A program made the translations under genes and the position numbers. Positions 7,589-21,442 of a stretch of 64,000 nt of DNA are shown piece by piece. The stretch lies in contig JAKOTQ010000023.1 in assembly GCA_029776205.1 (NCBI GenBank), positions 31,974 to 95,973 of the forward strand, given 5' to 3'. Under the pieces are notes generated by a model. That model saw only the letters and a list, made by a program, of their open reading frames with translations, searched no databases and was not told the origin of the DNA. Source of the DNA: Bacillota bacterium. GTDB lineage: Bacteria > Bacillota > UBA4882 > UBA8346. Each line of letters begins with the position of its first letter. The first letter of the stretch is position 1.

Positions 7589-7666
7589 TTGGTTTTGAAT
7601 TGTTAAAAAAATACGTGATCCCGGGCGAAGAGGAAACGTGCCAGGGGATTGGTTGGAGGAACGGCG

Positions 7667-8248
7667 ATGAAATGGCAACAGGTTTTTGCGTGCTATAATT
7701 ATCAAGGCAATACCGGTATCGGAAAATTGCGGTACTGCCCTATTTGTGGCACGGAATGCGAACTTCAGCCCGAAAACGATCGCCTGCGTCCGGCCTGTCC
7801 CAAGTGCGGTTTTATCCAATACCGCAATCCCAGTCCGGCGGTTTCCGTATTAATCGTCGATGACGGAAAAATCCTGTTGGGGAAGAGGGCAGGTTGGAAT
7901 TTTGAAGGAGGGAAATGGTGTTTTCCCTGCGGATATATTGAATATGACGAAGATTTTCTGACGGCGGGCCGCCGTGAGGTCCGGGAAGAAACCGGCCTGG
8001 ACGTGGCGATTACCGGGATAATCAATGTTGTCCACAATTTTTTTAATGAAGGATTACACACCTTGGTGGTAGTTTTGGCAGCACAGGTAAGGGGTGGAGT
8101 TCTTCAACCCAATGACGATCTTACTGAATTGCGTTGGTTTGGTCCGGATGAACAGTTGCCGGATTTGGCATTTGAAGCGGACCGTATATTGATTGATTAT
8201 TACCGCCAGGGAAAACTGACAAGGTTTATTGACGTATATCTGGAGTGA
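7667..8248 (+). CDS. Nudix hydrolase with N-terminal zinc ribbon
   Basis: 193-residue cytoplasmic pyrophosphohydrolase. Near residues 25-50 a CPIC...CPKC zinc ribbon resembles that of NudC-type NADH pyrophosphatases. The Nudix box follows as G-x5-E-x7-REVREETGLD (around residues 90-112), with all metal-binding glutamates. The substrate is probably a nucleoside diphosphate derivative such as NADH, ADP-ribose or a sugar nucleotide. The protein is shorter than NudC and lacks its long N-terminal domain. ATG 7667 follows GGAGG by 7 bases. Confidence 0.87.
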   Translation: MKWQQVFACYNYQGNTGIGKLRYCPICGTECELQPENDRLRPACPKCGFIQYRNPSPAVSVLIVDDGKILLGKRAGWNFEGGKWCFPCGYIEYDEDFLTAGRREVREETGLDVAITGIINVVHNFFNEGLHTLVVVLAAQVRGGVLQPNDDLTELRWFGPDEQLPDLAFEADRILIDYYRQGKLTRFIDVYLE

Positions 8249-8503
8249 TTCTATATTTTTCCTTGTTTTTCAGCAGTTAATCCTTTACAATTGAAACTAA
8301 TGGTAAAAAATTATGCAACGCAATTATTAAATAAAATTCAGAATATATCCAGGGTGAAATCATCTCTAGATCCCATGTCATAGACAAACGTGTGCGAGAT
8401 GGGACTGTCAATAGATCCGTTAAAATTAACAGAGTTCAATTATAAGATTTATAAATTACATAATAATAACGAACATTCAGCGAAACATTGGGTAGGTGAA
8501 GTG
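8249..8503. other. Intergenic region before the legionaminic acid cluster
   Basis: AT-rich, no convincing coding frame or hairpin. It must hold the promoter of the leg operon, but I could not settle on one: there is no good sigma-A match, and CATAGACAA around 8380 is only a loose match to a sporulation-type -10. Confidence 0.4.
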
Positions 8504-9490
8504 ATGAAACTAAAGGGTCAACGGGTTTTAGTTACCGGCGCTGCCGGATTTATCGGATCCCATTTAGCGGAGGAACTGGTGAAGGAAGGATGTGAGGTCC
8601 GGGCTTTCGTCAGGTATAATTCAAAAAATGATTGGGGCTGGTTGGAAACATCTGAATTGAAAAAAGAGATGGAGATTGTCGCTGGCGATATTCGTGATTA
8701 TGATTCCGTTGCCAAGGCGGTCCGGGGATGCGGTGCAGTAATGCACCTGGCAGCTCTGATTGGCATTCCTTATTCCTATGAGTCGCCATTGGCTTACATT
8801 CGTACCAATATTGAGGGAACGTATAATGTTTTGCAAGCGTCTTTGGCAAATGAGGTTAACCGAGTAGTGGTCACCTCTACCAGTGAAACCTATGGAACTG
8901 CTCAAATAGTTCCCATTCGTGAAGATCATCCTTTGGTTGGACAATCTCCCTATTCTGCCACTAAGATCGGGGCAGATCAGTTATCCATCAGTTATTACCG
9001 GAGCTTCGATCTGCCGGTGGCCATTATCCGGCCCTTTAATACTTATGGGCCCCGTCAATCGGCCCGGGCAATCATTCCGACGGTGATCACTCAGATACTC
9101 AGCGGATACCCTCAGATTAGACTGGGAAATCTCAGTCCAACCCGGGATTTTAATTATGTGTTGGATACGGTGAACGGTTTTCTGAAAGTTGCTGAGAGCG
9201 ACGCTGCGTTGGGACAGGTTATTAATATCGGTTCCGGGGTGGAAACCGGATTAAGAGATGTGATTGAGACCATTGCTGCAATCATCGGTACCGGGGTTGA
9301 GATTGTCCAAGAACAGCAGCGGATGCGTCCGGATAAAAGCGAAGTAGAACGGCTGTGGTGTGACAATTCCCGGGCTTTTGAGCTGACGGGATGGAAACCA
9401 CGCTATACTTTAAAAGAAGGTTTGCAGGAGACGATTGAATGGTTTCGGCAAAATCTAGGTCGATATAAAGCGGGAGTTTATAATCTCTAG
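8504..9490 (+). CDS. legB: NAD-dependent sugar-nucleotide 4,6-dehydratase, LegB
   Basis: First enzyme of CMP-legionaminic acid synthesis: an extended short-chain dehydrogenase that dehydrates a nucleotide-linked N-acetylglucosamine to the 4-keto-6-deoxy sugar. The NAD-binding TGAAGFIGSHL is at residues 9-19 and the catalytic YSATK near 150. Distinctive stretches (RAFVRYNSKNDWGWL, RPFNTYGPRQSARA, SEVERLWCDN) match the LegB subfamily rather than generic epimerases. ATG 8504 follows AGGTGA; the longer frame from 8390 has no ribosome site. In Campylobacter the substrate is GDP-GlcNAc; the presence of ptmE downstream supports the GDP route here. Confidence 0.9.
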   Translation: MKLKGQRVLVTGAAGFIGSHLAEELVKEGCEVRAFVRYNSKNDWGWLETSELKKEMEIVAGDIRDYDSVAKAVRGCGAVMHLAALIGIPYSYESPLAYIRTNIEGTYNVLQASLANEVNRVVVTSTSETYGTAQIVPIREDHPLVGQSPYSATKIGADQLSISYYRSFDLPVAIIRPFNTYGPRQSARAIIPTVITQILSGYPQIRLGNLSPTRDFNYVLDTVNGFLKVAESDAALGQVINIGSGVETGLRDVIETIAAIIGTGVEIVQEQQRMRPDKSEVERLWCDNSRAFELTGWKPRYTLKEGLQETIEWFRQNLGRYKAGVYNL

Positions 9491-9502
9491 GAGGCCGGAC
9501 AA

Positions 9503-10642
9503 ATGATTCCTTTGAGTGTCCCTCATTTTTCAGGGAATGAATGGACTTATGTTAAAGAATGTATCGATACTAACTGGGTATCATCGGCAGGACGCTTTGT
9601 GGATCTTTTTGAAGAACGGATGGCCGATTATCTGGGGATTGAGTATGGGGTCGCCGTGGTGAACGGTACGGCTGCAATCCATTTGGCTTTGAAGCTTACA
9701 GGGGTTGAGCCCGGAGACCGGGTGCTGGTTCCCTCGTTGACGTTTATTGCGTCGGTTAATCCGATCAAATACTGTGGTGCAGAACCGGTGTTTGTTGAGG
9801 TCAACCGGGAAACCTGGGGGATGGATCCGGCAGCAGCTGCTGCCAAGGTTGAGGAGTTGGAAGCGAAGGGTCAGAAAGTGAAAGCCATGATCGTGGTCCA
9901 TCTGTTCGGGCATCCGGTGGATTTGGATCCTTTGGTAGAATTATGCCGCCGCCATAATATATGGTTGATTGAGGATGCTACCGAAGCGCTTGGATCTGAG
10001 TATCGGGGCAAAAAAGCGGGGACTATCGGGGATATTGGTTGTTTTTCCTTTAACGGAAATAAATTGATTACAACCGGTGGCGGTGGGATGCTAGTAACCC
10101 GGGAGCAGAGTCTGGCAGAGAAAGCCCGTTATCTGTCCCAACAGGCCAAGGATGACCCTGAAAACTTTATCCACCGGGAAATCGGGTACAATTACCGTTT
10201 GACCAATATTCAAGCGGCGCTTGGCGTCGCTCAATTGGAACAGATCAATGGTTTTTTAAAGAAGAAGAAAGCCATTGCTGCTTGGTATAGCCAGGAGCTG
10301 GCTTCATTGGACGGGATTACTTTAACTCCGGAACAGCCATGGGCCAATAATTCATTTTGGTTGTATTCTATCTTGGTTGATCCCTTAAAGTTTGGCATGG
10401 GTTCTCGAGAGTTGATTCAGTATTTACGCCGTAACGGAGTTCAATCCCGGCCGTTTTTCTATCCGGTGCACCGGTTGCCCATGTACGAGGCGTGTGACCG
10501 GACAGAAATGAAAGAAACCATGCTATTGTGGGAAGAAGGCGTTAATTTGCCCTCCAGTGTTTCCTTGACGGAAGAGGATCTTCATCGGGTTGTTGAAGTG
10601 ATTCGGCAGGCCCACCTGGAAAGCATAGGAGCGGTTAGATGA
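9503..10642 (+). CDS. legC: LegC-type PLP-dependent aminotransferase
   Basis: 379-residue DegT/DnrJ/EryC1 aminotransferase that converts the 4-keto sugar nucleotide to the 4-amino form, using pyridoxal phosphate bound to the lysine in FNGNKLITTGGGG (near 190). The N-terminus MIPLSVPHFSGNEWTYVKEC is characteristic of LegC. It begins 12 bases after legB with AGGAGG upstream and its end overlaps legH by 4 bases, so the genes are translationally coupled. Confidence 0.9.
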   Translation: MIPLSVPHFSGNEWTYVKECIDTNWVSSAGRFVDLFEERMADYLGIEYGVAVVNGTAAIHLALKLTGVEPGDRVLVPSLTFIASVNPIKYCGAEPVFVEVNRETWGMDPAAAAAKVEELEAKGQKVKAMIVVHLFGHPVDLDPLVELCRRHNIWLIEDATEALGSEYRGKKAGTIGDIGCFSFNGNKLITTGGGGMLVTREQSLAEKARYLSQQAKDDPENFIHREIGYNYRLTNIQAALGVAQLEQINGFLKKKKAIAAWYSQELASLDGITLTPEQPWANNSFWLYSILVDPLKFGMGSRELIQYLRRNGVQSRPFFYPVHRLPMYEACDRTEMKETMLLWEEGVNLPSSVSLTEEDLHRVVEVIRQAHLESIGAVR

Positions 10643-11301
10643 AACCGGTAATTATTATTGGCGGTGGTGGACATGCCCGTTCAATACGGGCTTTATTGAA
10701 CGGGCTGCCTAATTATGAACCGGTTGGCTATACGGCAATGTCTCCTGGTGATATGGGAGATCTGCCATATCTTGGCGACGACCGGGTTTTACCCCGTTTG
10801 TTTGCCGATGGAATTCGTACTGCAGTTCTTGGTGTAGGCTCTATCCAACCCGGTCGGTTGCGGCGGAGATTGCTTACAGATTTAATGGCTATCGGTTTCG
10901 AACTGCCGGTGATTAAGGCTGTCTCGGCAGTGGTGGCTGATGATGTCCAAATTGGGGCGGGTACGGTTCTTTTTGAACGGGCAGTGGTTAATGCCAGGAC
11001 GAGATTGGGGGAAGGCGTGATTATCAATACTGGGGCTGTAGTTGAACATGACTGTGTAGTGGGGGACTTTACTCATCTGGCGCCGGCATCGGTGTTGGGC
11101 GGGGGAGTCCGGCTAGACGCTGATGTTCATGTAGGATTGAATGCGACGGTTATTGAAAACCGGGTGATTAGTTCCAGGATATTGATTGGCGCCGGTGCGG
11201 TGGTCTGTGAGGATTGTCTTCAGCCGGGAGTATATGTCGGTGTCCCTGCCCGAAGGTTGCGGGGATGGAATGATGATGAAACGGGATGGGATAGTCGATG
11301 A
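10639..11301 (+). CDS. legH: NeuD/PglD-type sugar O/N-acetyltransferase, LegH
   Basis: 220 aa. The N-terminal part (IIIGGGGHARSI) is the Rossmann-like sugar-binding domain of the NeuD/PglD family, followed from about residue 95 by left-handed beta-helix hexapeptide repeats (such as VQIGAGTVL and VIINTGAVVEHD) with the catalytic histidine in EHDCVVGD. It acetylates the 4-amino group of the LegC product using acetyl-CoA. It overlaps legC and legI by 4 bases each. Confidence 0.87.
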   Translation: MKPVIIIGGGGHARSIRALLNGLPNYEPVGYTAMSPGDMGDLPYLGDDRVLPRLFADGIRTAVLGVGSIQPGRLRRRLLTDLMAIGFELPVIKAVSAVVADDVQIGAGTVLFERAVVNARTRLGEGVIINTGAVVEHDCVVGDFTHLAPASVLGGGVRLDADVHVGLNATVIENRVISSRILIGAGAVVCEDCLQPGVYVGVPARRLRGWNDDETGWDSR

Positions 11302-12323
11302 AAGTTCATTCAGAACCGGTTTTCATTATTGCGGAAGCCGGGGTAAATCATAATGGCCATCTGGATACGGCCCTTCGGCTGGTGGAGGCAGCCAAAGAAG
11401 CCGGCGCAGATGCCGTTAAGTTTCAAACCTTTCGGGCGGACCGGATCGTCGGGATGGCTGCAGAAAAAGCGGCTTACCAAAAACGCCATACTTCAGCCGA
11501 TGAAACCCAATATCACATGTTAAAACGGTTGGAATTATCGGAGGAAGCTCACTATCGGTTGCTAGAACACTGCCGGAATTGTCAAATTGAGTTTTTATCG
11601 ACGCCCTTTGATTATGAAAGTGCGGACTTTTTGGATAAATTGGGGATCAGCCGGTTTAAAATACCGTCCGGGGAGATTACCAATATTCCTTTTCTGAAAT
11701 ATATTGCTGAAAAAGGCCGTCCGGTGATCCTGTCGACCGGTGCCTCGGATATAGGAGAAGTTGCTACTGCAATCACTGCTCTAGAGGACGGAGGAGCGGC
11801 CGGGATCAGTTTGCTCCATTGTGTGTCTCAATATCCGGCGCCTTTTGAAGATATCAATCTTAAGGCCATGAACACCTTGGCTAATGTCTTTCAGGTGCCG
11901 GTAGGATATTCCGATCATACGTTGGGAATCGAAATTGCCATTGCAGCTGTTGCCTTAGGGGCCCGGATCATTGAAAAGCATTTCACGCTAGACCGGAAGA
12001 TGCCGGGTCCTGATCATCAGGCTTCGATTGAACCTCCGGAATTTCAGAGGATGGTTCTTTCCATTCGCCATGTGGAGGCAGCATTGGGTGATGGGGTGAA
12101 ACGGCCGGCTGCTTCGGAACGGGAGATTCAGCAGATTATTCGTAAAAGTCTGGTGGCCTCCGTTGATCTGCGAAAAGGTGAGGTTATCACCCCGGAAATG
12201 CTTCTGACGAAACGGCCGGGGACGGGTATTCCTCCTTCCTTCTATAATGAAGTTATCGGGCTAAAGTTAATCCGGCCTGTTAAGCAAGATACAGTCTTGA
12301 AGTGGGAGGATTTTAAGGAGTGA
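11298..12323 (+). CDS. legI: N,N'-diacetyllegionaminate synthase (NeuB family), LegI
   Basis: 341 aa: NeuB TIM barrel (FIIAEAGVNHNG at the N-terminus, SGEITNIPFL, GYSDHTLG, EKHFTLDR) followed by a C-terminal SAF antifreeze-like domain from about 280. It condenses phosphoenolpyruvate with 2,4-diacetamido-2,4,6-trideoxymannose to give the nine-carbon acid. The family includes sialic, pseudaminic and legionaminic acid synthases; legionaminate is chosen because of the LegB/LegC/PtmE neighbours. Confidence 0.9.
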   Translation: MKVHSEPVFIIAEAGVNHNGHLDTALRLVEAAKEAGADAVKFQTFRADRIVGMAAEKAAYQKRHTSADETQYHMLKRLELSEEAHYRLLEHCRNCQIEFLSTPFDYESADFLDKLGISRFKIPSGEITNIPFLKYIAEKGRPVILSTGASDIGEVATAITALEDGGAAGISLLHCVSQYPAPFEDINLKAMNTLANVFQVPVGYSDHTLGIEIAIAAVALGARIIEKHFTLDRKMPGPDHQASIEPPEFQRMVLSIRHVEAALGDGVKRPAASEREIQQIIRKSLVASVDLRKGEVITPEMLLTKRPGTGIPPSFYNEVIGLKLIRPVKQDTVLKWEDFKE

Positions 12324-13492
12324 GGCAACGGAAAATTGCTGTGGTCACCGGAACCCGGGCTGAATACGGGTTATTGCATTCGTTGATCAAAGCGGTCCAT
12401 GAGGATGAAGCATTGCAATTGGAATTAATCGTCACCGGAATGCATCTTTCGCCGGAGTTCGGATTCACCGTAAGCGAGATCGAAAAAGACGGGTTTCCGA
12501 TTGCTAAACGTATAGAGATGCTGCTTTCATCGGATTCACCAACCGGTGTTGTCAAATCCGTCGGCTTAGGATGTATTGGCTTCGCTGATGCCTTAGCGGA
12601 AATCCGGCCGGATATTATGGTGGTACTGGGAGACCGGTTTGAGGCTCTGGCTGCGGCGGTTTCAGCGTTAATCCTGGGGATCCCTATTGCTCATATTCAC
12701 GGCGGAGAGATTACTGCCGGAGCAGTGGATGACAGTATCCGCCATAGTATCACCAAGATGAGTTCGTTTCATTTTACTGCAACCGAAGTATACCGAAAAC
12801 GGATTATCCGGATGGGAGAAGCGCCGGAGCGGGTTTTTGTGACCGGTGCACCGGGGTTGGACCGGCTGCGGGAAATGACCTTTTTGACACGGGAGCAATT
12901 GGAACGGGAGTTGGATTGGGAGATCCGGCACCCAGTGGCTTTGGTGACTTTTCATCCGGTTACGCTGGAACAGGGACATGCAGCGGCTCAGGTTGGATGT
13001 TTATTGGGGGCGATCCGGGAAGCCGGGATATCTGCAATTTTCACCGGGGCTAATGCAGATACTGAAGGAAGGTTGATTACAACTTTACTGACGGAGTTTT
13101 GCCAGGAAAACCCCAGCCGGTATCTTTTTTTCCCCAGCTTGGGGCAGTTACGCTATTTGAGTCTGTTGCAAGTGGCGGATCTGATGATTGGCAATTCGTC
13201 CAGTGGTATCATCGAAGCGCCTTCTTTTGGTCTTCCGGTGGTGAATATGGGGTCTCGGCAGGCTGGGCGAATGACTGGAAAAAATGTCATTCAGGTTCCG
13301 GTGGATCGGGAGAAGATCGTCGAAGGGATTCGTCTGGCTTTATCCGATGCATTTCGGAGTCAGGCTGGGCAGGCGGATAACCCGTATGCCCGGGACTACC
13401 GTGCTGGGTGGAATATTAAGGAGATTTTGAAAAATTCTGAACTGACGCCCAAAACAGTGATCAAAGGTTTTTACGAGGGGCCAATTGATTGA
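12320..13492 (+). CDS. legG: Hydrolysing sugar-nucleotide 2-epimerase (NeuC family), LegG
   Basis: 390-residue GT-B-fold epimerase that removes the nucleotide and inverts C2, giving the free mannose-configured sugar for LegI. It starts VVTGTRAEYGLL and contains VVLGDRFE, AHIHGGEITAGAVDDSIRH and GNSSSGIIEAPSFG, all typical of NeuC. The GTG start at 12320 overlaps the legI stop codon; the upstream ribosome site GGAGG lies inside legI. Confidence 0.9.
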   Translation: MRQRKIAVVTGTRAEYGLLHSLIKAVHEDEALQLELIVTGMHLSPEFGFTVSEIEKDGFPIAKRIEMLLSSDSPTGVVKSVGLGCIGFADALAEIRPDIMVVLGDRFEALAAAVSALILGIPIAHIHGGEITAGAVDDSIRHSITKMSSFHFTATEVYRKRIIRMGEAPERVFVTGAPGLDRLREMTFLTREQLERELDWEIRHPVALVTFHPVTLEQGHAAAQVGCLLGAIREAGISAIFTGANADTEGRLITTLLTEFCQENPSRYLFFPSLGQLRYLSLLQVADLMIGNSSSGIIEAPSFGLPVVNMGSRQAGRMTGKNVIQVPVDREKIVEGIRLALSDAFRSQAGQADNPYARDYRAGWNIKEILKNSELTPKTVIKGFYEGPID

Positions 13493-13504
13493 AGGAGCAG
13501 TCAA

Positions 13505-14553
13505 ATGAAAGATTTTCGACAAACATTGATCGCGCCGGAAACCACTTTGAGAGGTGCAATGGAGATTATGGATCGGGCCGCCCAGGGGCTCGTGATGGTC
13601 GTTGATTCGGAGGGCCGTTTGTTGGGGGTACTCACCGACGGTGATATGCGGCGGGCTATTTTAAAAGGCGTACCTTTTGAAGCGACCGTGGATGGCTTAA
13701 TGTCCAGGGAACCCATCGTAGCTTATCCTCATATGACGGATGGTGAAATCCGCCGTTTAATGCGGGAGAAGTCCATCCGGCAAGTTCCGGTGGTTGATGA
13801 TTCCAGAAAAGTGGTGGGATTGAAGCTCGTGGAGCAGTGTTTTGCGCCGGAGCGGCCCAATTGGGTGGTGTTGATGGGGGCGGTTTTGGAAAACGGTTAC
13901 TGCCGCTGACTTTGGAAACGCCTAAACCATTGTTGAAGGTGGGAAACCGGCCCATTCTGGAAACCATTATTGAACAGTTTAAAAGTTATGGCTTTGTTCA
14001 GTTTATTATCAGTCTGAACTATTTATCGGATAAAATTAAAAATCACCTCGGTGACGGCCGGAAACTGGGGGTGACCATTGAATATATTGAAGAGAAGAAA
14101 CCTTTGGGTACGGCCGGGGCGTTGAGCCTGATTCGGGTGCCCAGCGAGGAACCCATATTTGTGATGAATGGGGATGTACTCACTACTGTGAATTTTGACA
14201 GCTTCCAGGCCTATCATCAGGCAAAGAAGAATGATTTGACGATTGGAGTCCGGAATTTTTCGTGGACAATCCCTTACGGGGTAGTGGAGATGAAACAAGA
14301 ATTGGTTCGGGAGATTCAGGAGAAACCGACCTATCATTTTTTAGTTAACGGTGGTATTTATTTGCTTAATGCTCAGCTGATCCGGAGGATTCCTAAAAAT
14401 ACCTATTATGATATGACTCAATTGGCTAATGATCTGATCAAAGCCGGTGATCGAGTAGGTTGTTTTCCCATTACGGAGTATTGGATGGATATTGGCCGTC
14501 CGGATGATTTAATAAAAGCTAATCAGGATTATGCGAATATCTTTCAGAATTAA
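13505..14553 (+). pseudogene. ptmE: PtmE-type glucosamine-1-phosphate guanylyltransferase with CBS domains, frameshifted
   Basis: Two overlapping frames together make one PtmE-like protein. The first (13505-13909) holds two CBS motifs (LGVLTDGDMRRAI; IRQVPVVDD) and reaches RPNWVVLM, where the nucleotidyltransferase should begin with an AGGxGKRL loop. The second frame (usable up to 14553) continues with GGFGKRLLPLTLETPKPLL, NGDVL and the acidic YWMDIGRPDD end. Between ATG of VVLM and GGT of GGF there are 5 bases (GGGGC) where 6 are needed, so one base is missing near 13880. In Campylobacter PtmE makes GDP-glucosamine, the entry sugar of the pathway. The lesion may be a sequencing error in a G run, phase variation by slippage or a real mutation; the neighbours are intact. 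Confidence 0.8.
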
Positions 14554-14576
14554 TATGGTGATCTGAGGCGGTTGAT

Positions 14577-15290
14577 GTGAAACAATCATTTTTGGCGATT
14601 ATTCCAGCTCGGAGCGGCTCAAAGGGCATTCCGGGAAAAAATATTAAAGACCTTTATGGTAAGCCGTTAATTGGGTACACAGTGGAGGCGGCTTTGCAGT
14701 CCCCTTATTTCACAGCAGAAGATGTGATCTGCTCGACGGATTCTCCGGAGATTGCTCAAGTTGCCCGTTCCTATGGAGCGGCAGTTCCCTGGCTACGGCC
14801 GCCGGAATTGGCGCGGGATGATACCAATTCTGCTGCAGTGGTTGAAGATGTGGTCACTAGATTGGCTTCTTGTGGCCGATATTACCAACATTTGGTGTTA
14901 TTACAGCCCACCTCGCCACTGCGCACGGTGTCGCATATTAACCATGCCATCGAATTTTATCTGGAGAAAAAGGCAGATGCGGTAATATCCGTAGCTCCGG
15001 TCCGGGAATCGCCTTTTTGGATGAAGACCATGAATGAAGCTGGAGTTCTCAATAATCTTATTTCGCCTTCGGGAGAATACCTGCAGCGTCAACAGTTGCC
15101 CCAAGTATATCGACCCAATGGTGCTATTTATATTATACGGACGGAAGTTTTTCTGAGAGAGCGGAGTTTTTACCCTGCGGGAAGTTATGGCTTTGTGATG
15201 GATCGTCACAGCAGTGTGGATATAGATGAGGAATTAGACTGGATCATTGCCGAGAGGTTGGTGAAAGCTTCCGATGACAGTAGAAAATAA
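14577..15290 (+). CDS. legF: CMP-legionaminate (acylneuraminate) cytidylyltransferase, LegF
   Basis: 237 aa of the CMP-sialic acid synthetase family. The N-terminal IIPARSGSKGIPGKNIK is the CTP-binding loop, followed by LQPTSPLRT and the metal-binding region near VDIDEELDW. It activates the nine-carbon sugar to the CMP form for transfer. GTG 14577 follows GAGG. The end overlaps the next gene by 17 bases. Confidence 0.9.
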   Translation: MKQSFLAIIPARSGSKGIPGKNIKDLYGKPLIGYTVEAALQSPYFTAEDVICSTDSPEIAQVARSYGAAVPWLRPPELARDDTNSAAVVEDVVTRLASCGRYYQHLVLLQPTSPLRTVSHINHAIEFYLEKKADAVISVAPVRESPFWMKTMNEAGVLNNLISPSGEYLQRQQLPQVYRPNGAIYIIRTEVFLRERSFYPAGSYGFVMDRHSSVDIDEELDWIIAERLVKASDDSRK

Positions 15291-16344
15291 GATTTGCTTT
15301 GTGGTGCATACGTCGTTTCAGTTGATGTTTGCCACGATAATGCGTAAAAAGATTCAAGGAAAGTCTCAGCTGATCTGGGAAGATGACGGGCGGAATCAGC
15401 TCGATCATCTTCAATCTTTTATTGAGCAAAATTGGGAGCATCATTGGAGGCTTTCGACTCGAGAAAAAAAAGATCCGTCCCAGTGGCGGGAAATTAAGAA
15501 GGCCGCCTGCGACCAACTGAAACATTGTTGGATCTTATGTCTTTGGTCCCTTCATTCCAAAGTCAATCAGGCGATGATGGAAGCAGCCAAGGAAAAAGGA
15601 ATCACTGTATACGTTTTTCCGGAGGGCTTGATCATCTATGATTATTTTAAATCCGGGTTTGACCATTGGATCAAAACTATATCAGGCCGGTATATCTATT
15701 CCTTTGATTATTTTTTCACCTATTTTGGACAGGAGAGGTTTAACCATCCCCGGATTCGGCCGATGCCCTTTTTATTTACATCTTCCAATTTAGCTCAGCT
15801 GACATTGCCGGATGAAATAGGCTATCCTAATTTAGACTTCAATTCGTTTCAAGGGATATATCTAGGGCAACCCTTAAGCGAAGGGGGAATCTTAAGTGTG
15901 GATGAAGAAAACGGGTATCTAGAGGCAGTGTTTGCGGCGTTGCCGGCAACGGACAGAATTTTAGTTTTGCTACATCCCTGGGAACGGCCCGATAAATACC
16001 GGCGGTTTGGGAATGTTTTTCCTTTTTTCAATAATCATTTTCCTAACGAAATATGGCTCCATCATTGCAATCCACGTTATGTATTGACGGCTTATTCTAC
16101 GATTTTAATCAATTCAGCCTTGATCTTTCCGGCGGTTCCCCATGTGATGCTTTATCGGGCGGTAGGGCCTTTGAGGCGCCGGCGCCGCTTGCAATCTCTG
16201 GCAACAGCTTTTGAAGATATCCCTAATATTCGGCTACTTGATGCCATCTCAGATATTCCTGCAGCCATATCCCAACCGGTGACCCGGTTTTCAGTAGAGC
16301 CGGCTCTGGATGAAGCGGAATTTTTCAAACGGTATTTTACATAA
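15274..16344 (+). CDS. Putative sialyltransferase-like glycosyltransferase
   Basis: 356 aa, last gene of the legionaminic acid operon, starting inside legF. Segments such as VYVFPEGLIIYDYF, ILVLLHPWERPDKY and TILINSALIFPAVPHV resemble bacterial GT52 / polysialyltransferase-type enzymes, with the HP motif (here LLHPWE) used in CMP binding and a later Ser/Asn motif (INSALIFP). I infer that it transfers legionaminic acid from the CMP donor, the only job still missing in the cluster. No membrane helix. Acceptor unknown; assignment is by weak resemblance plus context. Confidence 0.6.
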   Translation: MTVENKICFVVHTSFQLMFATIMRKKIQGKSQLIWEDDGRNQLDHLQSFIEQNWEHHWRLSTREKKDPSQWREIKKAACDQLKHCWILCLWSLHSKVNQAMMEAAKEKGITVYVFPEGLIIYDYFKSGFDHWIKTISGRYIYSFDYFFTYFGQERFNHPRIRPMPFLFTSSNLAQLTLPDEIGYPNLDFNSFQGIYLGQPLSEGGILSVDEENGYLEAVFAALPATDRILVLLHPWERPDKYRRFGNVFPFFNNHFPNEIWLHHCNPRYVLTAYSTILINSALIFPAVPHVMLYRAVGPLRRRRRLQSLATAFEDIPNIRLLDAISDIPAAISQPVTRFSVEPALDEAEFFKRYFT

Positions 16345-17409
16345 TTAACAGGATAATACGGATTCTTTCCAATGGAAAACGCCGTTTCCGGATGGAAATT
16401 CGCTGAGAAACTTTTCTCTTAAAAAACGCCATTCGATCCGATGTTCCAATTTTCTCACGAAACGTTGAGTTGGCCACGGCAGCTTTTCATAGTAATATTG
16501 AAGTCCGACTTGCCAAAAATCCTCCGGCCAGCTTAATAAGACATACATCACTTCCATTTCATCGGCGCTAAGTTTGGATACTTGATGGTATTTACGGAGG
16601 ATAAACCGGCAGACATCTATGCTCCATTCCTGGTGGCGCAGATTGCGAAGGAGCAGGTTCATAATATCGTGGATCCGGATATCGCGGAGGCAATAGTCAA
16701 AATCAATTAATGCCAGTTGCCCTTGGGAATTCCTTAAGATATTCCGGCTGGAATAATCGTGATGGCACAAGCTTTTTTGTTGGTACCCTTCAGAGGCTAC
16801 AAACGGGTAAAAGGATTGGAGCAAACGTTCATAACTGCGGATGGCCTGACGGTAAAAAGGTTCAAAGTGTCGCAGATATAAACGGCTAAATACGGAAGTT
16901 TCCTTTTCGGCCAGAGCCAGACGGCGAAAATCGTTCAATTCCCGGATCCGCCGTTCCCATTTGGCAGGCCAGCTATACCAGGCAGTCCGCTGATTGGGAA
17001 AGGCAGGTTCAAATCCCTGCCCATAGCGGTGAAATTCGGCAAGATACCGACAGGCATCAGCTAAATCATTGAAGTTGTTAAAATCGAGTTCATTACCATC
17101 AAACCAATCGGTAAGGATATAGATCCCGTCCGGCCCGTTGGCAAAGGGTTCTCCGGCTTGGCCCAACCATAAGCGGGGTGCCGTTCGGAAGCCTTTGACA
17201 TGAAGGTATTCCAGGACTTCATAGATAAACTGAAGGTCAGCCGGAGCCAGTTTGGATTGTTTTAAATATTTCGTTCCTTCAGAGGTTTCGATTTTCCAAA
17301 CTTTACGGCAGTTTTCCGCCTGATATAGTTTTAAACCATAGCTTTCAGTTACTTTCCGAAGGACCTCAAATTGATCCGGCGGATGAATAACAGCTTGAAT
17401 GGTGGACAT
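16345..17409 (-). CDS. CotS-family spore coat protein (kinase-like fold)
   Basis: 354 aa, aminoglycoside-phosphotransferase/choline-kinase fold of the CotS/YutH group found in spore coats. The pseudo-catalytic loop is LCHHDYSSRNIL (near residue 215) and the metal site is ALIDFDYC (near 234), so the core kinase residues D, N and D are kept. Late helices carry the family pattern WPEDFWQVGLQYYYEKLPW. It follows the next CotS gene by 30 bases, with AAAGGAG before its ATG, and converges back to back with the glycosyltransferase (no gap). Likely last gene of a three-gene cotS operon. Confidence 0.85.
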   Translation of the reverse strand: MSTIQAVIHPPDQFEVLRKVTESYGLKLYQAENCRKVWKIETSEGTKYLKQSKLAPADLQFIYEVLEYLHVKGFRTAPRLWLGQAGEPFANGPDGIYILTDWFDGNELDFNNFNDLADACRYLAEFHRYGQGFEPAFPNQRTAWYSWPAKWERRIRELNDFRRLALAEKETSVFSRLYLRHFEPFYRQAIRSYERLLQSFYPFVASEGYQQKSLCHHDYSSRNILRNSQGQLALIDFDYCLRDIRIHDIMNLLLRNLRHQEWSIDVCRFILRKYHQVSKLSADEMEVMYVLLSWPEDFWQVGLQYYYEKLPWPTQRFVRKLEHRIEWRFLREKFLSEFPSGNGVFHWKESVLSC

Positions 17410-17439
17410 GGTATACTCCTTTGAGCCAATGGTTTCATC

Positions 17440-18465
17440 TTAATTCGGATATCTGGTGCTGTCAAAATAATGATCAAACTGAACTTGAAAATCGGCCATA
17501 TTCTGTTGCTTTTCGAGTAGTTTTTGAAATTTCAGCACTTCCCGTTCGGGGGAGTAGTGGTTATGGCGATGAAAATGGCGGATGGACATTCGCCAGAATT
17601 TTTGGGGGAAGTAAAAGGTGGCGCGCATCACATCCAGTTCTTCAGGAGATAAGGGAATCACTTCCTGATAAGCATCAATGATGAGCCGGGCGGTTTCAAA
17701 ATTCCAATCGTGTTTTTTCATCACCCTGCGGGTGAATTTTATCAGATCCATAATCGGCAGATCCAAGCGGGTGCTGTCAAAATCGATCATGAAGATGTTC
17801 CCCTGAGGGGTAAGGATAAAATTACGGGCAGCCGGATCGCCGTGGCAAAAGGTTTGATTGAACTTGGCTTGTTGGACCAGTTGAGTGTAGTTGCTGGCTT
17901 TCAGTTTGACAATGGCCGTTTCGGCCATAGGCAGAAAGAAATCGACGTTTTCCAGATAAAGCCGAGCGAATTCATCGTGTTGGATGTGTCGTGCCTGTTT
18001 TTTAAAATCCACCAAATTTTGATAACGTTCTTCAAAATGCCTCAGGCATTTTCCCAAAAGGTCCCGCATATTGGAACCCGGTGGCGGGGTAAATCCGGCT
18101 GAACATTGATGAAACTCCGCAAGTGCCCGGGTGGACTCCTTTAATTCCTCAGGATAACTGAAATCTGCTTGCCGTCCTTCGATCCAGTCAAATAGGGAGA
18201 AAGCGTAGCCGTGGCTACTGACATAGGTATCGCCGGAAAGGGTAGGGATCAACGGAACCATGCGGGTAAATCCCCGGAGAATCAGATGTTGTACTGCGCC
18301 ATGGACAAAAGCCAACCGTTCCGGATTGAAGGGAGAAATTTTTAAATTTTTCGTTCCGTTATCGGTTTCCACCCGGAAAACGTCTTTAATTTTTTCCCAG
18401 CGAAAGGCGGTCAAACCCCAACGGCTCATTAAAGCCGGTACTTCCAAGAATAATCGATCCATCAT
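17440..18465 (-). CDS. CotS-family spore coat protein (kinase-like fold)
   Basis: 341 aa, second of three tandem CotS-like genes. Catalytic-loop equivalent FCHGDPAARNFIL near 230 and MIDFDSTRLD near 250; C-terminal pattern YFPQKFWRMSIRHF. Two in-frame ATGs (18465, 18462) follow GGAGG at 6 or 9 bases; the frame extends further up to 18624 but would run into the preceding gene and lacks a ribosome site. Protein kinase-like coat proteins are usually made in the mother cell; whether this one phosphorylates anything is unknown. Confidence 0.83.
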   Translation of the reverse strand: MMDRLFLEVPALMSRWGLTAFRWEKIKDVFRVETDNGTKNLKISPFNPERLAFVHGAVQHLILRGFTRMVPLIPTLSGDTYVSSHGYAFSLFDWIEGRQADFSYPEELKESTRALAEFHQCSAGFTPPPGSNMRDLLGKCLRHFEERYQNLVDFKKQARHIQHDEFARLYLENVDFFLPMAETAIVKLKASNYTQLVQQAKFNQTFCHGDPAARNFILTPQGNIFMIDFDSTRLDLPIMDLIKFTRRVMKKHDWNFETARLIIDAYQEVIPLSPEELDVMRATFYFPQKFWRMSIRHFHRHNHYSPEREVLKFQKLLEKQQNMADFQVQFDHYFDSTRYPN

Positions 18466-18481
18466 CAGTAACCTCCGCGTT

Positions 18482-19486
18482 TTAGTTATTTTTTGCCCCG
18501 ACTGACGGTAATGGCATCGTCGGGAACCAGCTTTGCAATAATTGAGCTCGCCGGGGCTCTTCGTCAAAAAGATGCCAAAATTTGCGTTGAAAGTGCCCTT
18601 CTGTCCAGGGAAGCTTCTCTTCAAAACGCTGGCTGCATAATCTCCAGAAACGGTGGGGGAAGCAAAGTGAGATGCGGATGAAAGATACGGCTTCCTCTGT
18701 CAGAGGGCGTTCCCGATGATACGTTTCACAGATCGAATTGAAACAATCGGGTTGCCAATCATTGGCGGCCATGGCCCGTTGGATAAGGGTGGCCAGTTCA
18801 ACCGGAAACCAATCGATGGCCGATAACTCATAATCAATCAACACCCATTGGTTGTTTTGGATGATGATATTCCGGGGTGCTGGATCTTTGTGACAAAAGC
18901 CCACTTCCGAATAAAGCCGGGGTTCTTTGGTGAAAGGATGAGTTTCGAGGATTTTCAATGCTGTGTCGGCCTGAATGAGGAAATGATCGCTCCAGCGTAA
19001 GATACCGCGGTCGATCCGGTTTAAGTGATTTTCCCTTTTCAATCGGGCGATTAATGTTTGGAGGAATTGCCGCTTTTGCTGATAAACTTCCATTAGATCC
19101 GGAAAAGGCGGTACCGAAGGTAACGCCGTTTGGGCAATACGGTGAAGGTTGGCTAGCAAAGCGGCAGTCCGTTTCCAATGGTTCGGATTGGAAAAGGAAG
19201 GATGGGCTCCGTTGACCCACGGCATGACAATATAGCGTCCGGTAGGCAGCTCACAATAGGGCTGACGGGACCGGGTTCTTAGCAAAGGAATTAGTCCTTT
19301 AAAACCTGCTTGGCACAGCGATTCGATACTGTCTGCCAACCAAAGCAATTGTTGGGGAGAACGGGTGGTTTTTTTCAGTAAAAAGACCCCTGAATGGGTA
19401 TGGATTTTCCAGGCTGGCCCCTGAGGTTGGCAAAGCGTACATTCAAGGCCGTAGTGGCGTTTAAGCTCCGTTAACCACGGATGCAT
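18482..19486 (-). CDS. CotS-family spore coat protein (kinase-like fold), first of operon
   Basis: 334 aa, first of three tandem CotS-like genes and the most divergent. The loop reads FCHKDPAPRNIII and the metal motif is LIDYELS, i.e. the DFD aspartates are changed to D-Y-E, so phosphotransfer may be lost. The C-terminal FPHRFWRLCSQRFEEKLPW is typical of the family. ATG 19486 lies 11 bases after GGAGG; a GTG at 19498 sits inside that site and is less likely. A sigma-K-like promoter lies just upstream. Confidence 0.8.
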   Translation of the reverse strand: MHPWLTELKRHYGLECTLCQPQGPAWKIHTHSGVFLLKKTTRSPQQLLWLADSIESLCQAGFKGLIPLLRTRSRQPYCELPTGRYIVMPWVNGAHPSFSNPNHWKRTAALLANLHRIAQTALPSVPPFPDLMEVYQQKRQFLQTLIARLKRENHLNRIDRGILRWSDHFLIQADTALKILETHPFTKEPRLYSEVGFCHKDPAPRNIIIQNNQWVLIDYELSAIDWFPVELATLIQRAMAANDWQPDCFNSICETYHRERPLTEEAVSFIRISLCFPHRFWRLCSQRFEEKLPWTEGHFQRKFWHLFDEEPRRAQLLQSWFPTMPLPSVGAKNN

Positions 19487-19517
19487 GATGGTTATCACCT
19501 CCGCTGTGCTTTCGTCC

Positions 19518-19546
19518 TATACTATGTTAAATGGTGAATTTTTGTT
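19518..19546 (-). promoter_or_regulatory. Sigma-K-like promoter of the cotS operon
   Basis: On the minus strand, AACA (19546-19543), 16-base spacer, then CATAGTATA (19526-19518). This matches the sigma-K pattern of AC at -35 and CATAnnnTA at -10. The expected start is about 10 bases before the GGAGG of the first cotS gene. It fits late mother-cell expression of coat genes. Confidence 0.5.
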
Positions 19547-19600
19547 AGCGCCTGCAGAGAAAATGCTGAAACGATGTATGAAACAGGGGTTAACTGAACA

Positions 19601-19621
19601 GGGGAACATGGTTCCCCTTTT
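19601..19621 (+). terminator. Hairpin with T run upstream of the 55-residue gene
   Basis: GGGGAAC and GTTCCCC around an ATG loop, followed by TTTTAAT on the plus strand. It has no plus-strand gene before it, so it may be a leader attenuator or part of the divergent control region. Confidence 0.5.
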
Positions 19622-19660
19622 AATGCTTTATGCATAGGATAGTGGCGGAGGTGTATTCCG

Positions 19661-19828
19661 ATGTCGAATCCCTTCAAGCACTTGTGGAAATTGGACCAGA
19701 AGATTTTCCTCGGTGTGATTGGGTTGGAATTGCTCAAAACATTGATTGTTCCGAATCCTATCGATGTACTGATCCTCACGGGTTTGATTGTGATTTTTTT
19801 AGGGTGGTACTCCGATGGTTTCAAATGA
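19661..19828 (+). CDS. Small two-helix membrane protein upstream of a cotS gene
   Basis: 55 aa (starts MSNPFKHLWKLDQK, ends WYSDGFK), with a strong GGAGGTG ribosome site 8 bases before the ATG. Two hydrophobic stretches (IFLGVIGLELLKTLIV; IDVLILTGLIVIFLGW) suggest a small integral membrane protein. It overlaps the following cotS start by 14 bases, indicating translational coupling. A CATAGGATA sequence at 19633-19641 resembles a sigma-K -10 but I see no matching -35. No known family recognised. Confidence 0.65.
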   Translation: MSNPFKHLWKLDQKIFLGVIGLELLKTLIVPNPIDVLILTGLIVIFLGWYSDGFK

Positions 19829-20780
19829 GTTGCAGGGGGTGCTTGAGGGTTATCGGTTAAGTCCCCGGGCTGAGTTGGAACCGCATCGCAGCGTATGGTT
19901 GGTCGATGACGGTCAAAGCCTTAAAGTGCTGAAACCATTGAAAACCGGAGCAGTCCGCTCTTTTTTAATTGGCGAATTATTAAAAGAAATCAATGAAGGA
20001 AGGCGGGTTCCGGATTTGATCCCTACCGAAAGGGGCCATAACTATCTTTGGTTTCGAGGAAACCGTTATTTTCTGACTCGATGGTTGGACGGAAGGGAAG
20101 CGGACTACTACCGGGATGAGGATCTGGCAGCGGCGATTGGGGCGATGCGGTGGTTTCATGAAAGTACGGGACGGTTAGTTGAAGCCTCATCTTGTTGGGA
20201 GTATTTCAGGTTTCAACCGGGCCGGGAATGGAACTGTTATCTCCGGGAAATGGAAGCTTGCAGGCGTTTGGCAATCCGGCGGGGAGACGGCTGGTGCAGG
20301 CAATACCTCCGGCTTTGGCCGGCCTATTATGAACAGGCGTATCATGCCATTGACGCATATCGCAGTATGGTGAAGCAAGCCGGAAAGTGCCTTTGTTACC
20401 ACGACTGGGCCCATCATAATGTGGTGATCCGGGAAGGAAAGGCTTGTCTTTTTGATTTTGATTATTTGCTGATGGACAACGCGGTGCACGATAAAGCCAA
20501 TTTAATTTCCAGGTATGCCCGTTTGCATCATTGGGATTATCGATACCTGTTGAAAATCCTGTGGTTATTTGATAAACACTATCCCTGGAAAAAGGGAGAA
20601 TTGCGTCTGTTACATGTTTATCTGACCTTTCCTTATGATTATTGGATGTTTGGCAGGCAATTTCTCATCGAGCAACTGCCCTGGAGCCGACGTTATCTGG
20701 AGGAACAATGGCAGCGGAAAGCGGCTTGGATAAGTCGACGAAACCGTGCGTTGGAGATTCTGGAAGCATTAGAGGCTTAG
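19815..20780 (+). CDS. CotS-family spore coat protein (kinase-like fold), fourth copy
   Basis: 321 aa, divergent from the other three cotS genes. Catalytic loop CYHDWAHHNVVI (near 197) and CLFDFDYLLMD (near 215) keep the H-x-D, N and DFD residues. C-terminal FPYDYWMFGRQF follows the family. It overlaps the 55-residue membrane protein gene by 14 bases. With four CotS paralogues beside the legionaminic acid genes, a role in building or modifying the spore surface is the natural inference. Confidence 0.82.
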   Translation: MVSNELQGVLEGYRLSPRAELEPHRSVWLVDDGQSLKVLKPLKTGAVRSFLIGELLKEINEGRRVPDLIPTERGHNYLWFRGNRYFLTRWLDGREADYYRDEDLAAAIGAMRWFHESTGRLVEASSCWEYFRFQPGREWNCYLREMEACRRLAIRRGDGWCRQYLRLWPAYYEQAYHAIDAYRSMVKQAGKCLCYHDWAHHNVVIREGKACLFDFDYLLMDNAVHDKANLISRYARLHHWDYRYLLKILWLFDKHYPWKKGELRLLHVYLTFPYDYWMFGRQFLIEQLPWSRRYLEEQWQRKAAWISRRNRALEILEALEA

Positions 20781-21010: not shown

Positions 21011-21442
21011 ATGTTTATGGGTGAATACCAACATGCCATGGATGAAAAAGGCCGGTTGATTATACCGGCTAAATTCCGCGAAGGCCTGGGCGAGAAATTT
21101 GTGATCACCCGGGGCTTGGATAACTGTTTGTTTGTTTACCCCATGGAACAGTGGAAACAGCTGGAAGATAAGATTAAAGAACTCCCTACCTCCCACGCTG
21201 ATACCCGTGCCTTTGTCCGGATGTTTTTCTCCGGTGCCGTGGAGGCTGAGTTGGATAAACAGGGGCGGGTGGTTATTCCGGCCCATTTGAGAGAACATGC
21301 CCGGATTGAACGGGATTTATATGTCATCGGTGTTTCGACAAAAGTGGAGATTTGGGCGAAAGAGACTTGGGAAAGCTATTCAAGTCAGGCTCAACAATCT
21401 TATGAAAGCATTGCTGAGAAAATTATCGATATCGGAATTTAG
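21011..21442 (+). CDS. mraZ: Transcriptional regulator MraZ
   Basis: 143 aa with two AbrB-like (SpoVT/AbrB superfamily) MraZ repeats: MGEYQHAMDEKGRLIIPAKFR at the start and EAELDKQGRVVIPAHLR in the second half, each carrying the DxxGR signature. It binds direct repeats before its own operon and controls the division and cell wall cluster. First gene of the dcw operon; the ribosome site GGAG is part of the third operator repeat. Confidence 0.95.
   Translation: MFMGEYQHAMDEKGRLIIPAKFREGLGEKFVITRGLDNCLFVYPMEQWKQLEDKIKELPTSHADTRAFVRMFFSGAVEAELDKQGRVVIPAHLREHARIERDLYVIGVSTKVEIWAKETWESYSSQAQQSYESIAEKIIDIGI

What the first reader, a model, noticed from the sequence alone, without database searches (positions are those of the whole stretch)
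8504..20780. Complete legionaminic acid pathway next to four CotS-type spore coat genes
Seen: legB, legC, legH, legI, legG, ptmE and legF in one tight operon plus a sialyltransferase-like gene, directly followed by four CotS-family genes (three in a minus-strand operon, one on the plus strand). Known: CotS-type proteins are spore coat proteins, and nonulosonic acid genes occur in some spore polysaccharide (sps) loci. Inference: legionaminic acid decorates the spore surface here, with the CotS-like proteins as anchors or modifying enzymes. The GDP-sugar (PtmE/LegB) route resembles Campylobacter flagellar glycosylation rather than the Bacillus sps set.
Basis: partly seen in the sequence, partly recalled or inferred. 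Interest (0 to 1): 0.7.

Follow-up and report, generated by a model that had tools for sequence, protein, structure and literature searches.

The report
Legionaminic acid genes beside spore kinases
This bacterium carries genes predicted to make and attach the sialic-acid-like sugar legionaminic acid next to four spore-kinase-like genes, but in the related genomes examined the kinase block is found without the sugar genes beside it, so the pairing is likely a local arrangement and not a shared spore-coating system.

Summary
The genes are there, with corrections. Window 8504-15290 encodes legB, legC, legH, legI, legG, ptmE and legF; a polysialyltransferase-like gene (15274-16344) overlaps legF. 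In this assembly ptmE is split between two frames, so "complete" needs a caveat. Four CotS-type (bacterial spore kinase) genes follow: two pass the curated CotS cut-off, two do not, and all four keep kinase motifs. The two blocks converge tail to tail, so they are not one operon.

Comparison does not support the spore inference. The CotS block occurs at least in part in 9 of 9 family relatives, on one contig with mraZ in 6, with no leg genes in the stretches seen. Of 38 legB loci in the phylum sample outside this genome, 20 lie near flagellar genes and 0 near CotS. In the family, legB and pseB (over cut-off) occur together only here: this genome has a flagellar pseudaminic set plus the leg operon, so legionaminic acid is likely used on a non-flagellar surface. 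A sister species keeps the transferase beside CotS without leg genes there. CotS genes have sporulation-type promoter matches; the leg operon has only a weak one. A spore role remains possible but unproven.

The parts
8504..9490 (+). legB, NAD-dependent 4,6-dehydratase (longer GTG-started frame from 8390)
   Evidence: TIGR04180 494.4 bits, over cut-off
9503..10642 (+). legC, aminotransferase
   Evidence: TIGR04181 459.2 bits, over cut-off
10639..11301 (+). legH, NeuD-family acetyltransferase
   Evidence: TIGR03570 179.7 bits, over cut-off
11298..12323 (+). legI, nonulosonic acid synthase (NeuB plus SAF domains)
   Evidence: TIGR03569 475.3 bits, over cut-off; PseI model 312.3, below its cut-off
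12320..13492 (+). legG, NeuC-type hydrolysing 2-epimerase
   Evidence: TIGR03568 464.4 bits, over cut-off
13505..13909 (+). ptmE 5' part, two CBS domains
   Evidence: PF00571, two stretches; separate frame from the next part
13837..14553 (+). ptmE 3' part, sugar-1-phosphate nucleotidyltransferase, in a different frame
   Evidence: PF00483 135.5 bits; 113 of the 120 listed proteins of this kind are 300 aa or longer
14577..15290 (+). legF, CMP-nonulosonate cytidylyltransferase
   Evidence: PF02348; PseF model 171 bits, below its cut-off
15274..16344 (+). polysialyltransferase-like glycosyltransferase (PF07388), overlaps legF by 17 nt
   Evidence: PF07388 45.6 bits; E117-G118 and H234-P235 invariant in 4 sequences; H-P segment aligned to SiaD 5WCN, E 0.019
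16345..17409 (-). cotSa, bacterial spore kinase family
   Evidence: TIGR02906 276.4 bits, over cut-off; HHDYSSRN and DFD motifs
17440..18480 (-). cotSb, bacterial spore kinase family (open frame to 18624; likely start near 18465)
   Evidence: TIGR02906 271.7 bits; YtaA/CotI 2Q83 E 5e-36; HGDPAARN and DFD motifs
18482..19498 (-). cotSc, bacterial spore kinase family
   Evidence: TIGR02906 159.3 bits, below cut-off; HKDPAPRN and DYE motifs
19518..19545 (-). sporulation-type promoter match of the cotSc-b-a operon (AC-N17-CATAGTATA)
   Evidence: a match on the cotSc strand in 8 of 10 loci examined
19633..19641 (+). sporulation-type -10 match (CATAGGATA) before a small ORF (19661-19828) and cotSd
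19815..20780 (+). cotSd, bacterial spore kinase family
   Evidence: TIGR02906 133.6 bits, below cut-off; YHDWAHHN and DFD motifs
21011..21442 (+). mraZ, downstream of the CotS block in relatives too
   Evidence: PF02381; synteny

Best explanation
The operon at 8504-16344 encodes a Campylobacter-type legionaminic acid pathway plus a polysialyltransferase-like enzyme that likely attaches the sugar to a non-flagellar cell-surface glycan, and its position beside the CotS kinases is likely a lineage-specific juxtaposition rather than part of a conserved spore system. Shown: gene identities, convergent orientation, a CotS block near mraZ in relatives without leg genes in the stretches seen, leg loci near flagellar genes in many relatives, and a separate flagellar pseudaminic set in this genome. 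Inferred: GDP-GlcNAc is converted by LegB, LegC, LegH, LegG and LegI to legionaminic acid, activated by LegF, and transferred by the PF07388 enzyme, whose gene overlaps legF by 17 nt. Inferred: the operon descends from the flagellar kind and now serves another surface. Untested: the acceptor, the timing of expression, and whether the split ptmE still works or is an assembly error.
For: Profiles. The CotS block is present at least in part in 9 of 9 family relatives, complete and on the mraZ contig in 6 of 9 and in another family (G017), with no leg gene in the stretches seen. Flagellar genes lie within about 10 kb of legB in 20 of 38 phylum loci outside this genome, CotS in 0 of 38. Control: 9 of 38 LegB-bearing genomes, this one included, have CotS over cut-off, and only here is such a gene seen near legB. 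In the family, LegB over cut-off is in 4 of 10 genomes, PseB over cut-off in 4 of 10, both only in this one, neither in three. Window LegB groups with three flagellar leg operons (99/94), LegC with the same three more weakly (83/91). No flagellin, FliD, FliS or FlgN match in the window.
Against: The transferase lies beside cotSa in both genus members seen, and known spore-kinase genes cluster with glycosyltransferases (PMC2860764), so a spore role cannot be dismissed. In 4 of 10 family genomes (G000, G002, G005, G009) a nonulosonate synthase gene lies about 5-15 kb from a second CotS-like pair; I read this as flagellar-cluster synteny, but it is a recurrent neighbourhood. LegI groups, at 94/85, with two non-flagellar rows of the same family, not with the flagellar operons. 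A weak sporulation-like promoter match lies upstream of legB. In G006 and G008 the contig ends within about 0.4 kb of cotSa, so that side is unseen. Split ptmE may mean no product is made. Nothing here shows expression.
Confidence: 0.55

Rival explanations
1. Spore-surface legionaminic acid: the operon and its transferase decorate the spore coat or crust, together with the CotS kinases.
For: SpoIVA present; transferase adjacent to cotSa in both genus members seen; spore kinases cluster with glycosyltransferase and nucleotide-sugar genes in Bacillus and Clostridium (PMC2860764 section 15); B. subtilis spores carry legionaminic acid (PMC7439481); flagella appear served by pseudaminic acid; a weak promoter match ranks 7 of 127,942 positions with the full matrix.
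Against: No conservation of leg with the CotS block in the loci examined; convergent, not co-transcribed; strict sporulation-type pattern absent at 7601-8520; with promoter elements alone the leg site ranks 24 in the window and 7th of 59 upstream regions.
Confidence: 0.27
2. The operon is not functional in this strain: ptmE is broken and the pathway is being lost, as in the sister species.
For: ptmE in two frames; the cluster holding the window's own 230-aa fragment has a longest contig of 120,961 bases, longer than this assembly's contig of 95,973, so the split probably recurs in another assembly; sister contig L066 lacks leg genes between nudix and transferase, has a possible legF remnant and a transferase match in two frames.
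Against: The other leg genes are open frames; an 87% relative has intact ptmE; the break could be an assembly error; another enzyme could supply GDP-GlcNAc (not searched for).
Confidence: 0.12
3. Flagellar use: legionaminic acid made here goes to flagellin although the genes lie elsewhere.
For: Closest LegB relatives are in flagellar loci; legB loci are near flagellar genes in 20 of 38 cases.
Against: This genome has flagellin next to PseI and PseB next to an MptE-like gene; no flagellar query gene matches the window; the operon ends in a polysialyltransferase-like gene instead of a flagellin glycosyltransferase.
Confidence: 0.06

Closest known systems
Campylobacter jejuni GDP-type CMP-legionaminic acid pathway (gene set recalled; GDP-linked precursors also stated in PMC7439481 passages)
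   Same: legB, legC, legH, legG, legI, legF and ptmE homologues in one cluster
   Different: Split ptmE here; a PF07388 transferase and no flagellar genes nearby
Bacillus subtilis sps spore legionaminic acid pathway (PMC7439481)
   Same: CMP-legionaminic acid synthesis in a bacterium with sporulation genes
   Different: sps uses UDP precursors and SpsM; its Leg transferase was not identified in that paper; here LegB/PtmE and a candidate transferase, without a clear sporulation promoter
Bacterial spore kinases, CotS/YtaA(CotI)/YutH/YsxE (PMC2860764)
   Same: Four relatives with kinase motifs; a three-gene operon with a fourth nearby, as described for BSKC2-6-1 and BSKC4 in Clostridium
   Different: Two fall below the CotS model cut-off; near mraZ; in G002 and G004 the neighbour of cotSa is pnp, not a glycosyltransferase
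GT38 bacterial polysialyltransferases (NmB-polyST, PMC2169525; SiaD 5WCN)
   Same: PF07388 match; E-G and H-P residues retained
   Different: Very remote in sequence (PDB E 0.019); only 3 homologues found by a word-limited search; acceptor and product unknown
Flagellar Leg/Pse glycosylation loci of Clostridium (PMC13317340, abstract and passages)
   Same: Same kinds of biosynthetic genes; in relatives of the window they lie next to flagellin, fliD, fliS
   Different: Here away from flagellar genes, in a genome whose flagellar locus has Pse genes

Membership tests
GDP-type legionaminic acid pathway | LegB, LegC and LegI/LegG homologues over curated cut-offs | tested here: met
GDP-type legionaminic acid pathway | Intact PtmE guanylyltransferase (CBS plus NTP transferase in one protein) | tested here: not met
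   Two ORFs in different frames in this assembly; most listed relatives are single proteins
GDP-type legionaminic acid pathway | GDP- rather than UDP-linked precursors | not testable with these tools
   Inferred from LegB and PtmE homology only
CotS / bacterial spore kinase family | TIGR02906 score over 172.7 bits | tested here: inconclusive
   Met by 2 of 4 (276, 272), not by 2 of 4 (159, 134)
CotS / bacterial spore kinase family | Kinase-type catalytic Asp and metal-binding Asp motifs | tested here: met
   Motifs in 4 of 4; 2Q83 YtaA sequence match for cotSb, E 5e-36
CotS / bacterial spore kinase family | Sporulation-time expression | tested here: inconclusive
   Sporulation-type promoter matches on the cotSc strand in 8 of 10 loci; expression not measured
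B. subtilis-type spore legionaminic (sps) system | SpsM-type UDP-GlcNAc dehydratase as first enzyme | tested here: not met
   First enzyme of this operon is LegB, over cut-off
B. subtilis-type spore legionaminic (sps) system | Sporulation promoter before the leg genes | tested here: inconclusive
   No strict match; weak site, 7th of 59 upstream regions
B. subtilis-type spore legionaminic (sps) system | Legionaminic acid on the spore surface | not testable with these tools
   Needs chemistry
GT38 polysialyltransferase | PF07388 over curated cut-off | tested here: met
   45.6 bits, cut-off 23.3
GT38 polysialyltransferase | Functional residues E-G and H-P (PMC2169525 passages) | tested here: met
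   E117-G118 and H234-P235 invariant in 4 sequences; the first acidic residue of the D/E-D/E-G motif is P116 here; the E-G assignment is by eye
GT38 polysialyltransferase | Fold of SiaD | tested here: inconclusive
   Model failed, pLDDT 36.9
Flagellar Leg island | Adjacent flagellar genes | tested here: not met
   No flagellin, fliD, fliS or flgN match in the 64-kb window

The most novel reading that the evidence does not exclude
The PF07388 enzyme is the missing spore-surface legionaminic acid transferase: a GDP-route legionaminic pathway was captured from a flagellar locus, joined to a polysialyltransferase-like enzyme and placed beside the spore-kinase block, giving spores a sialic-acid-like or even polymeric coat glycan while the flagella use pseudaminic acid.
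Probability: 0.22. Interest if true: 0.65.

Novelty: new variant of a known kind. Interest (0 to 1): 0.38.

Why it matters
In B. subtilis the enzyme that puts legionaminic acid on spores was not identified (PMC7439481, section 13 read). Here a transferase candidate gene overlaps the last gene of the pathway. The family also offers a natural comparison: its members have flagellar Leg or Pse genes, and the one genome with both keeps Leg away from flagellar genes. If the sugar is on the spore, this would be another route to legionaminic acid on spores; if not, it is a case of a flagellar-type sugar pathway re-used for another surface.

Tried and rejected
A fold of the transferase from a 4-sequence alignment failed (pLDDT 36.9), so no fold search was run. 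A second homologue search with the alignment found the same 3 proteins. The idea that the family's own flagellar leg operon simply moved was not supported: window LegB and LegC group with operons of other families, not with G005 or G008; LegI does not follow this and groups with two other rows of the same family. A second conserved Leg-CotS locus was considered: in 4 of 10 family genomes a nonulosonate synthase lies about 5-15 kb from a second CotS-like pair. I set it aside because that pair goes with heptose-type genes in the copies seen, while the NeuB, PseI or leg genes near it differ and in G005 and G009 belong to a fliD-flgN-fliS cluster. Degeneracy of the ptmE active site was dropped: Lys at that motif position occurs in 7 of the 120 listed proteins, the window's own included. 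The promoter matrix with spacer ranked the leg site 7 of 127,942 positions, but without the AT-rich spacer it fell to rank 24 and 7th of 59 genes, so I do not count it as evidence. The whole sister spacer does not align to the leg region better than shuffles (44 against a maximum of 45 in 50); only its end matches legF.
Full report
What is in the window. Pfam and NCBIfam scans identify legB (8504-9490), legC (9503-10642), legH (10639-11301), legI (11298-12323), legG (12320-13492) and legF (14577-15290). LegB, LegC, NeuD, NeuB and NeuC models are over their curated cut-offs; the best LegF model, PseF, is under its cut-off. The next gene (15274-16344) starts inside legF and matches PF07388, the alpha-2,8-polysialyltransferase family, at 45.6 bits against a cut-off of 23.3. 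The CotS-like genes are at 16345-17409, 17440-c.18465 and 18482-19498 on the minus strand and 19815-20780 on the plus strand. TIGR02906 scores are 276, 272, 159 and 134 against a cut-off of 172.7. All four keep the catalytic-loop and metal-binding motifs, and cotSb matches the solved B. subtilis spore kinase YtaA/CotI (2Q83, E 5e-36). They are therefore predicted kinases of the bacterial spore kinase family, not obvious structural anchors.

Two corrections to the observation. First, ptmE is split: the CBS domains (13505-13909) and the nucleotidyltransferase (13837-14553) lie in different frames. A protein 87% identical to the window's nucleotidyltransferase part is intact at 349 aa. Of the best 120 proteins listed (5542 passed the threshold; the window's own is among the 120), 113 are 300 aa or longer. 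The break may be real or an assembly error. The cluster holding the window's own 230-aa fragment has five members and a longest contig of 120,961 bases, longer than this assembly's contig of 95,973, so the same fragment probably occurs in another assembly. Second, the leg operon and the three-gene CotS operon converge, with stop codons abutting at 16344/16345. They cannot share a promoter.

The CotS block is independent of leg. With cotSb as query, 9 of 9 family relatives (G001-G009) have related genes. In six of the nine (G002, G003, G005, G006, G007, G009) all four genes lie on one contig with mraZ in the same order; in G001, G004 and G008 the block is cut by contig ends. G017, from another family, has the same block beside mraZ. 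No leg gene was found in the stretches seen around these blocks. The stretches differ: in G006 and G008 the contig ends within about 0.4 kb of cotSa, and in G003 and G009 only about 3 kb is visible on that side. pnp is next to cotSa in G002 and G004 and one ORF away in G017; in the window genome pnp is on another contig.

Where leg genes usually are. A search with the window's LegB in 299 phylum genomes found 38 genomes with a match at E <= 1e-90, this one included, giving 38 loci outside this genome. In stretches reaching about 10 kb to each side where the contig allowed, tblastn with flagellin, FliD, FliS and FlgN hit 20 of 38 loci, and tblastn with six CotS-type queries hit 0 of 38 (19 flagellar loci, the G041 locus). 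Five of these loci are on stretches under 12 kb, so the counts are lower bounds. As a control, TIGR02906 over cut-off is present in 9 of 38 LegB-bearing genomes, this one included. Outside this genome no such match was seen near legB: the nearest on one contig is about 100 kb away, in G174, and the nearest match of any strength is a 21-bit one about 22 kb away, in G287. The family's own LegB genomes G003, G005 and G008 gave no row in that sample. G005 has the whole leg operon, with intact ptmE, between flagellin plus an MptE-like gene and fliD-flgN-fliS; a second CotS-like pair follows about 12 kb after legF. G003 has legB near an MptE-like gene on one contig and legI-H-ptmE-F beside fliD-flgN-fliS on another. 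G008, of the same genus as G003, has the whole operon on a 9-kb contig without a flagellar hit.

Leg or Pse, and here both. LegB over cut-off is found in G000, G003, G005 and G008 (4 of 10). PseB over cut-off is found in G000, G002, G007 and G009 (4 of 10). Only the window genome has both; G001, G004 and G006 have neither. Its contig C117 carries an MptE-like gene and PseB, and contig C78 carries flagellin next to PseI at 489 bits. The flagellar sugar is thus predicted to be pseudaminic acid, leaving legionaminic acid for another surface. No flagellin, FliD, FliS or FlgN match lies in the 64-kb window. Some of these genomes are incomplete (72-100%), so absences are provisional.

Origin. In maximum-likelihood trees of loci with long enough tblastn segments (35, 40 and 42 rows for LegC, LegI and LegB) the window LegB groups with the flagellar leg operons of G174, G066 and G294 (99/94), and LegC with the same three at weaker support (83/91). 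LegI does not: it falls, at 94/85, with two rows of the same family from non-flagellar loci (G003, G008) that sit on a long branch. The family's own flagellar operons lie elsewhere in the LegB and LegC trees. Acquisition of a flagellar-type operon from another lineage is therefore an inference that LegI does not support.

The sister species. G001, seen also as MAG contig JAKOSX010000255.1 (L066), has nudix, then the transferase, then cotSa, with no leg genes between. The spacer as a whole does not align to the leg region better than shuffles, but its end matches the legF 3' end at 16 of 19 bases, a score reached by 0.035% of random window segments. This suggests loss of the operon there. A LegI search found nothing in G001, which is 85% complete, and its best LegB-model hit is far below cut-off. 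Its transferase match lies in two frames on this contig, although protein P0003, 76% identical to the window's, reads through that segment.

The transferase. A search of 5.8 billion proteins, limited to relatives sharing exact words, gave 3 homologues (95, 84 and 76%), and a search with their alignment the same 3. E117-G118 and H234-P235 are invariant in the four sequences. In the meningococcal enzyme E153, G154, H278 and P279 are needed for full activity (PMC2169525, passages seen); I assign the correspondence of E-G by eye, while the H-P segment aligns to the SiaD structures, E 0.019. The structure prediction failed. A nonulosonate transferase is likely; its acceptor and product are unknown.

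Promoters. Using recalled consensus patterns for mother-cell sigma factors, the cotSc operon has a match on its own strand in 8 of 10 loci (window, sister, G003, G005, G006, G007, G008, G017; not G002 or G009), 6 of these 8 with AC 17 bases upstream by my count of the printed sites; cotSd has one in 5 of 10. A second CotS-like module has matches on both strands in 7 of 7 intergenic stretches tested, of nine copies seen. The pattern occurs about 0.39 times per kb per strand in the window. The leg upstream region has no strict match. A matrix trained on other loci gives it a weak site ranked 7 of 127,942 positions with spacer, but rank 24 and 7th of 59 upstream regions without spacer, where cotSd and cotSc rank 2nd and 3rd of 59. 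This neither joins nor separates the two blocks firmly.

Reading. I read the operon as a legionaminic acid module with its own transferase, likely for a non-flagellar envelope glycan, next to a family-wide spore-kinase block by lineage-specific arrangement. A spore role is the main rival: spore kinases are known to cluster with glycosyltransferases and nucleotide-sugar genes (PMC2860764, section 15 read; other passages), and B. subtilis spores carry legionaminic acid whose transferase was not identified (PMC7439481, section 13 read; other passages). A listing search for 'nonulosonic acid' with 'CotS' gave 2 papers, neither with a term in title or abstract; I did not read them, and I make no wider claim about the literature.

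Noticed in passing
L067:734-6369 (own contig C84) and counterparts in L068, L069, L070/L071, L072, L085, L086, L102, L106: A second conserved module: two CotS-like genes divergent from hddA-like, gmhB-like and glycosyltransferase genes (heptose type; the NCBIfam heptose hits are below cut-offs). In the own genome the CotS-like pair lacks the catalytic-loop motif (possible pseudokinases; one keeps a DWE), while hddA is 84-90% identical within the family. It suggests a heptose-containing spore glycan.
   Followed up: partly
L067:3369-3384 and counterparts: A 16-bp near-palindrome (CATAGGATATTTTATG in 6 of 7) carries overlapping divergent sporulation-type -10 matches between the CotS-like pair and hddA in 7 of 7 stretches tested.
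   Followed up: partly
window 19661-19828: Small predicted protein (55 aa, hydrophobic) upstream of and overlapping cotSd, strongly conserved in the sister species.
   Followed up: no
L067:8121-9167: A third nonulosonate synthase-like gene in this genome (NeuB, 377 bits, below the 399.65 cut-off), with no other leg or pse gene matched in its 20-kb stretch; G002 has a 69% identical copy.
   Followed up: no
L066:553-1619: The transferase match of the sister MAG lies in two frames near its N-terminal region, though P0003 reads through that segment.
   Followed up: partly
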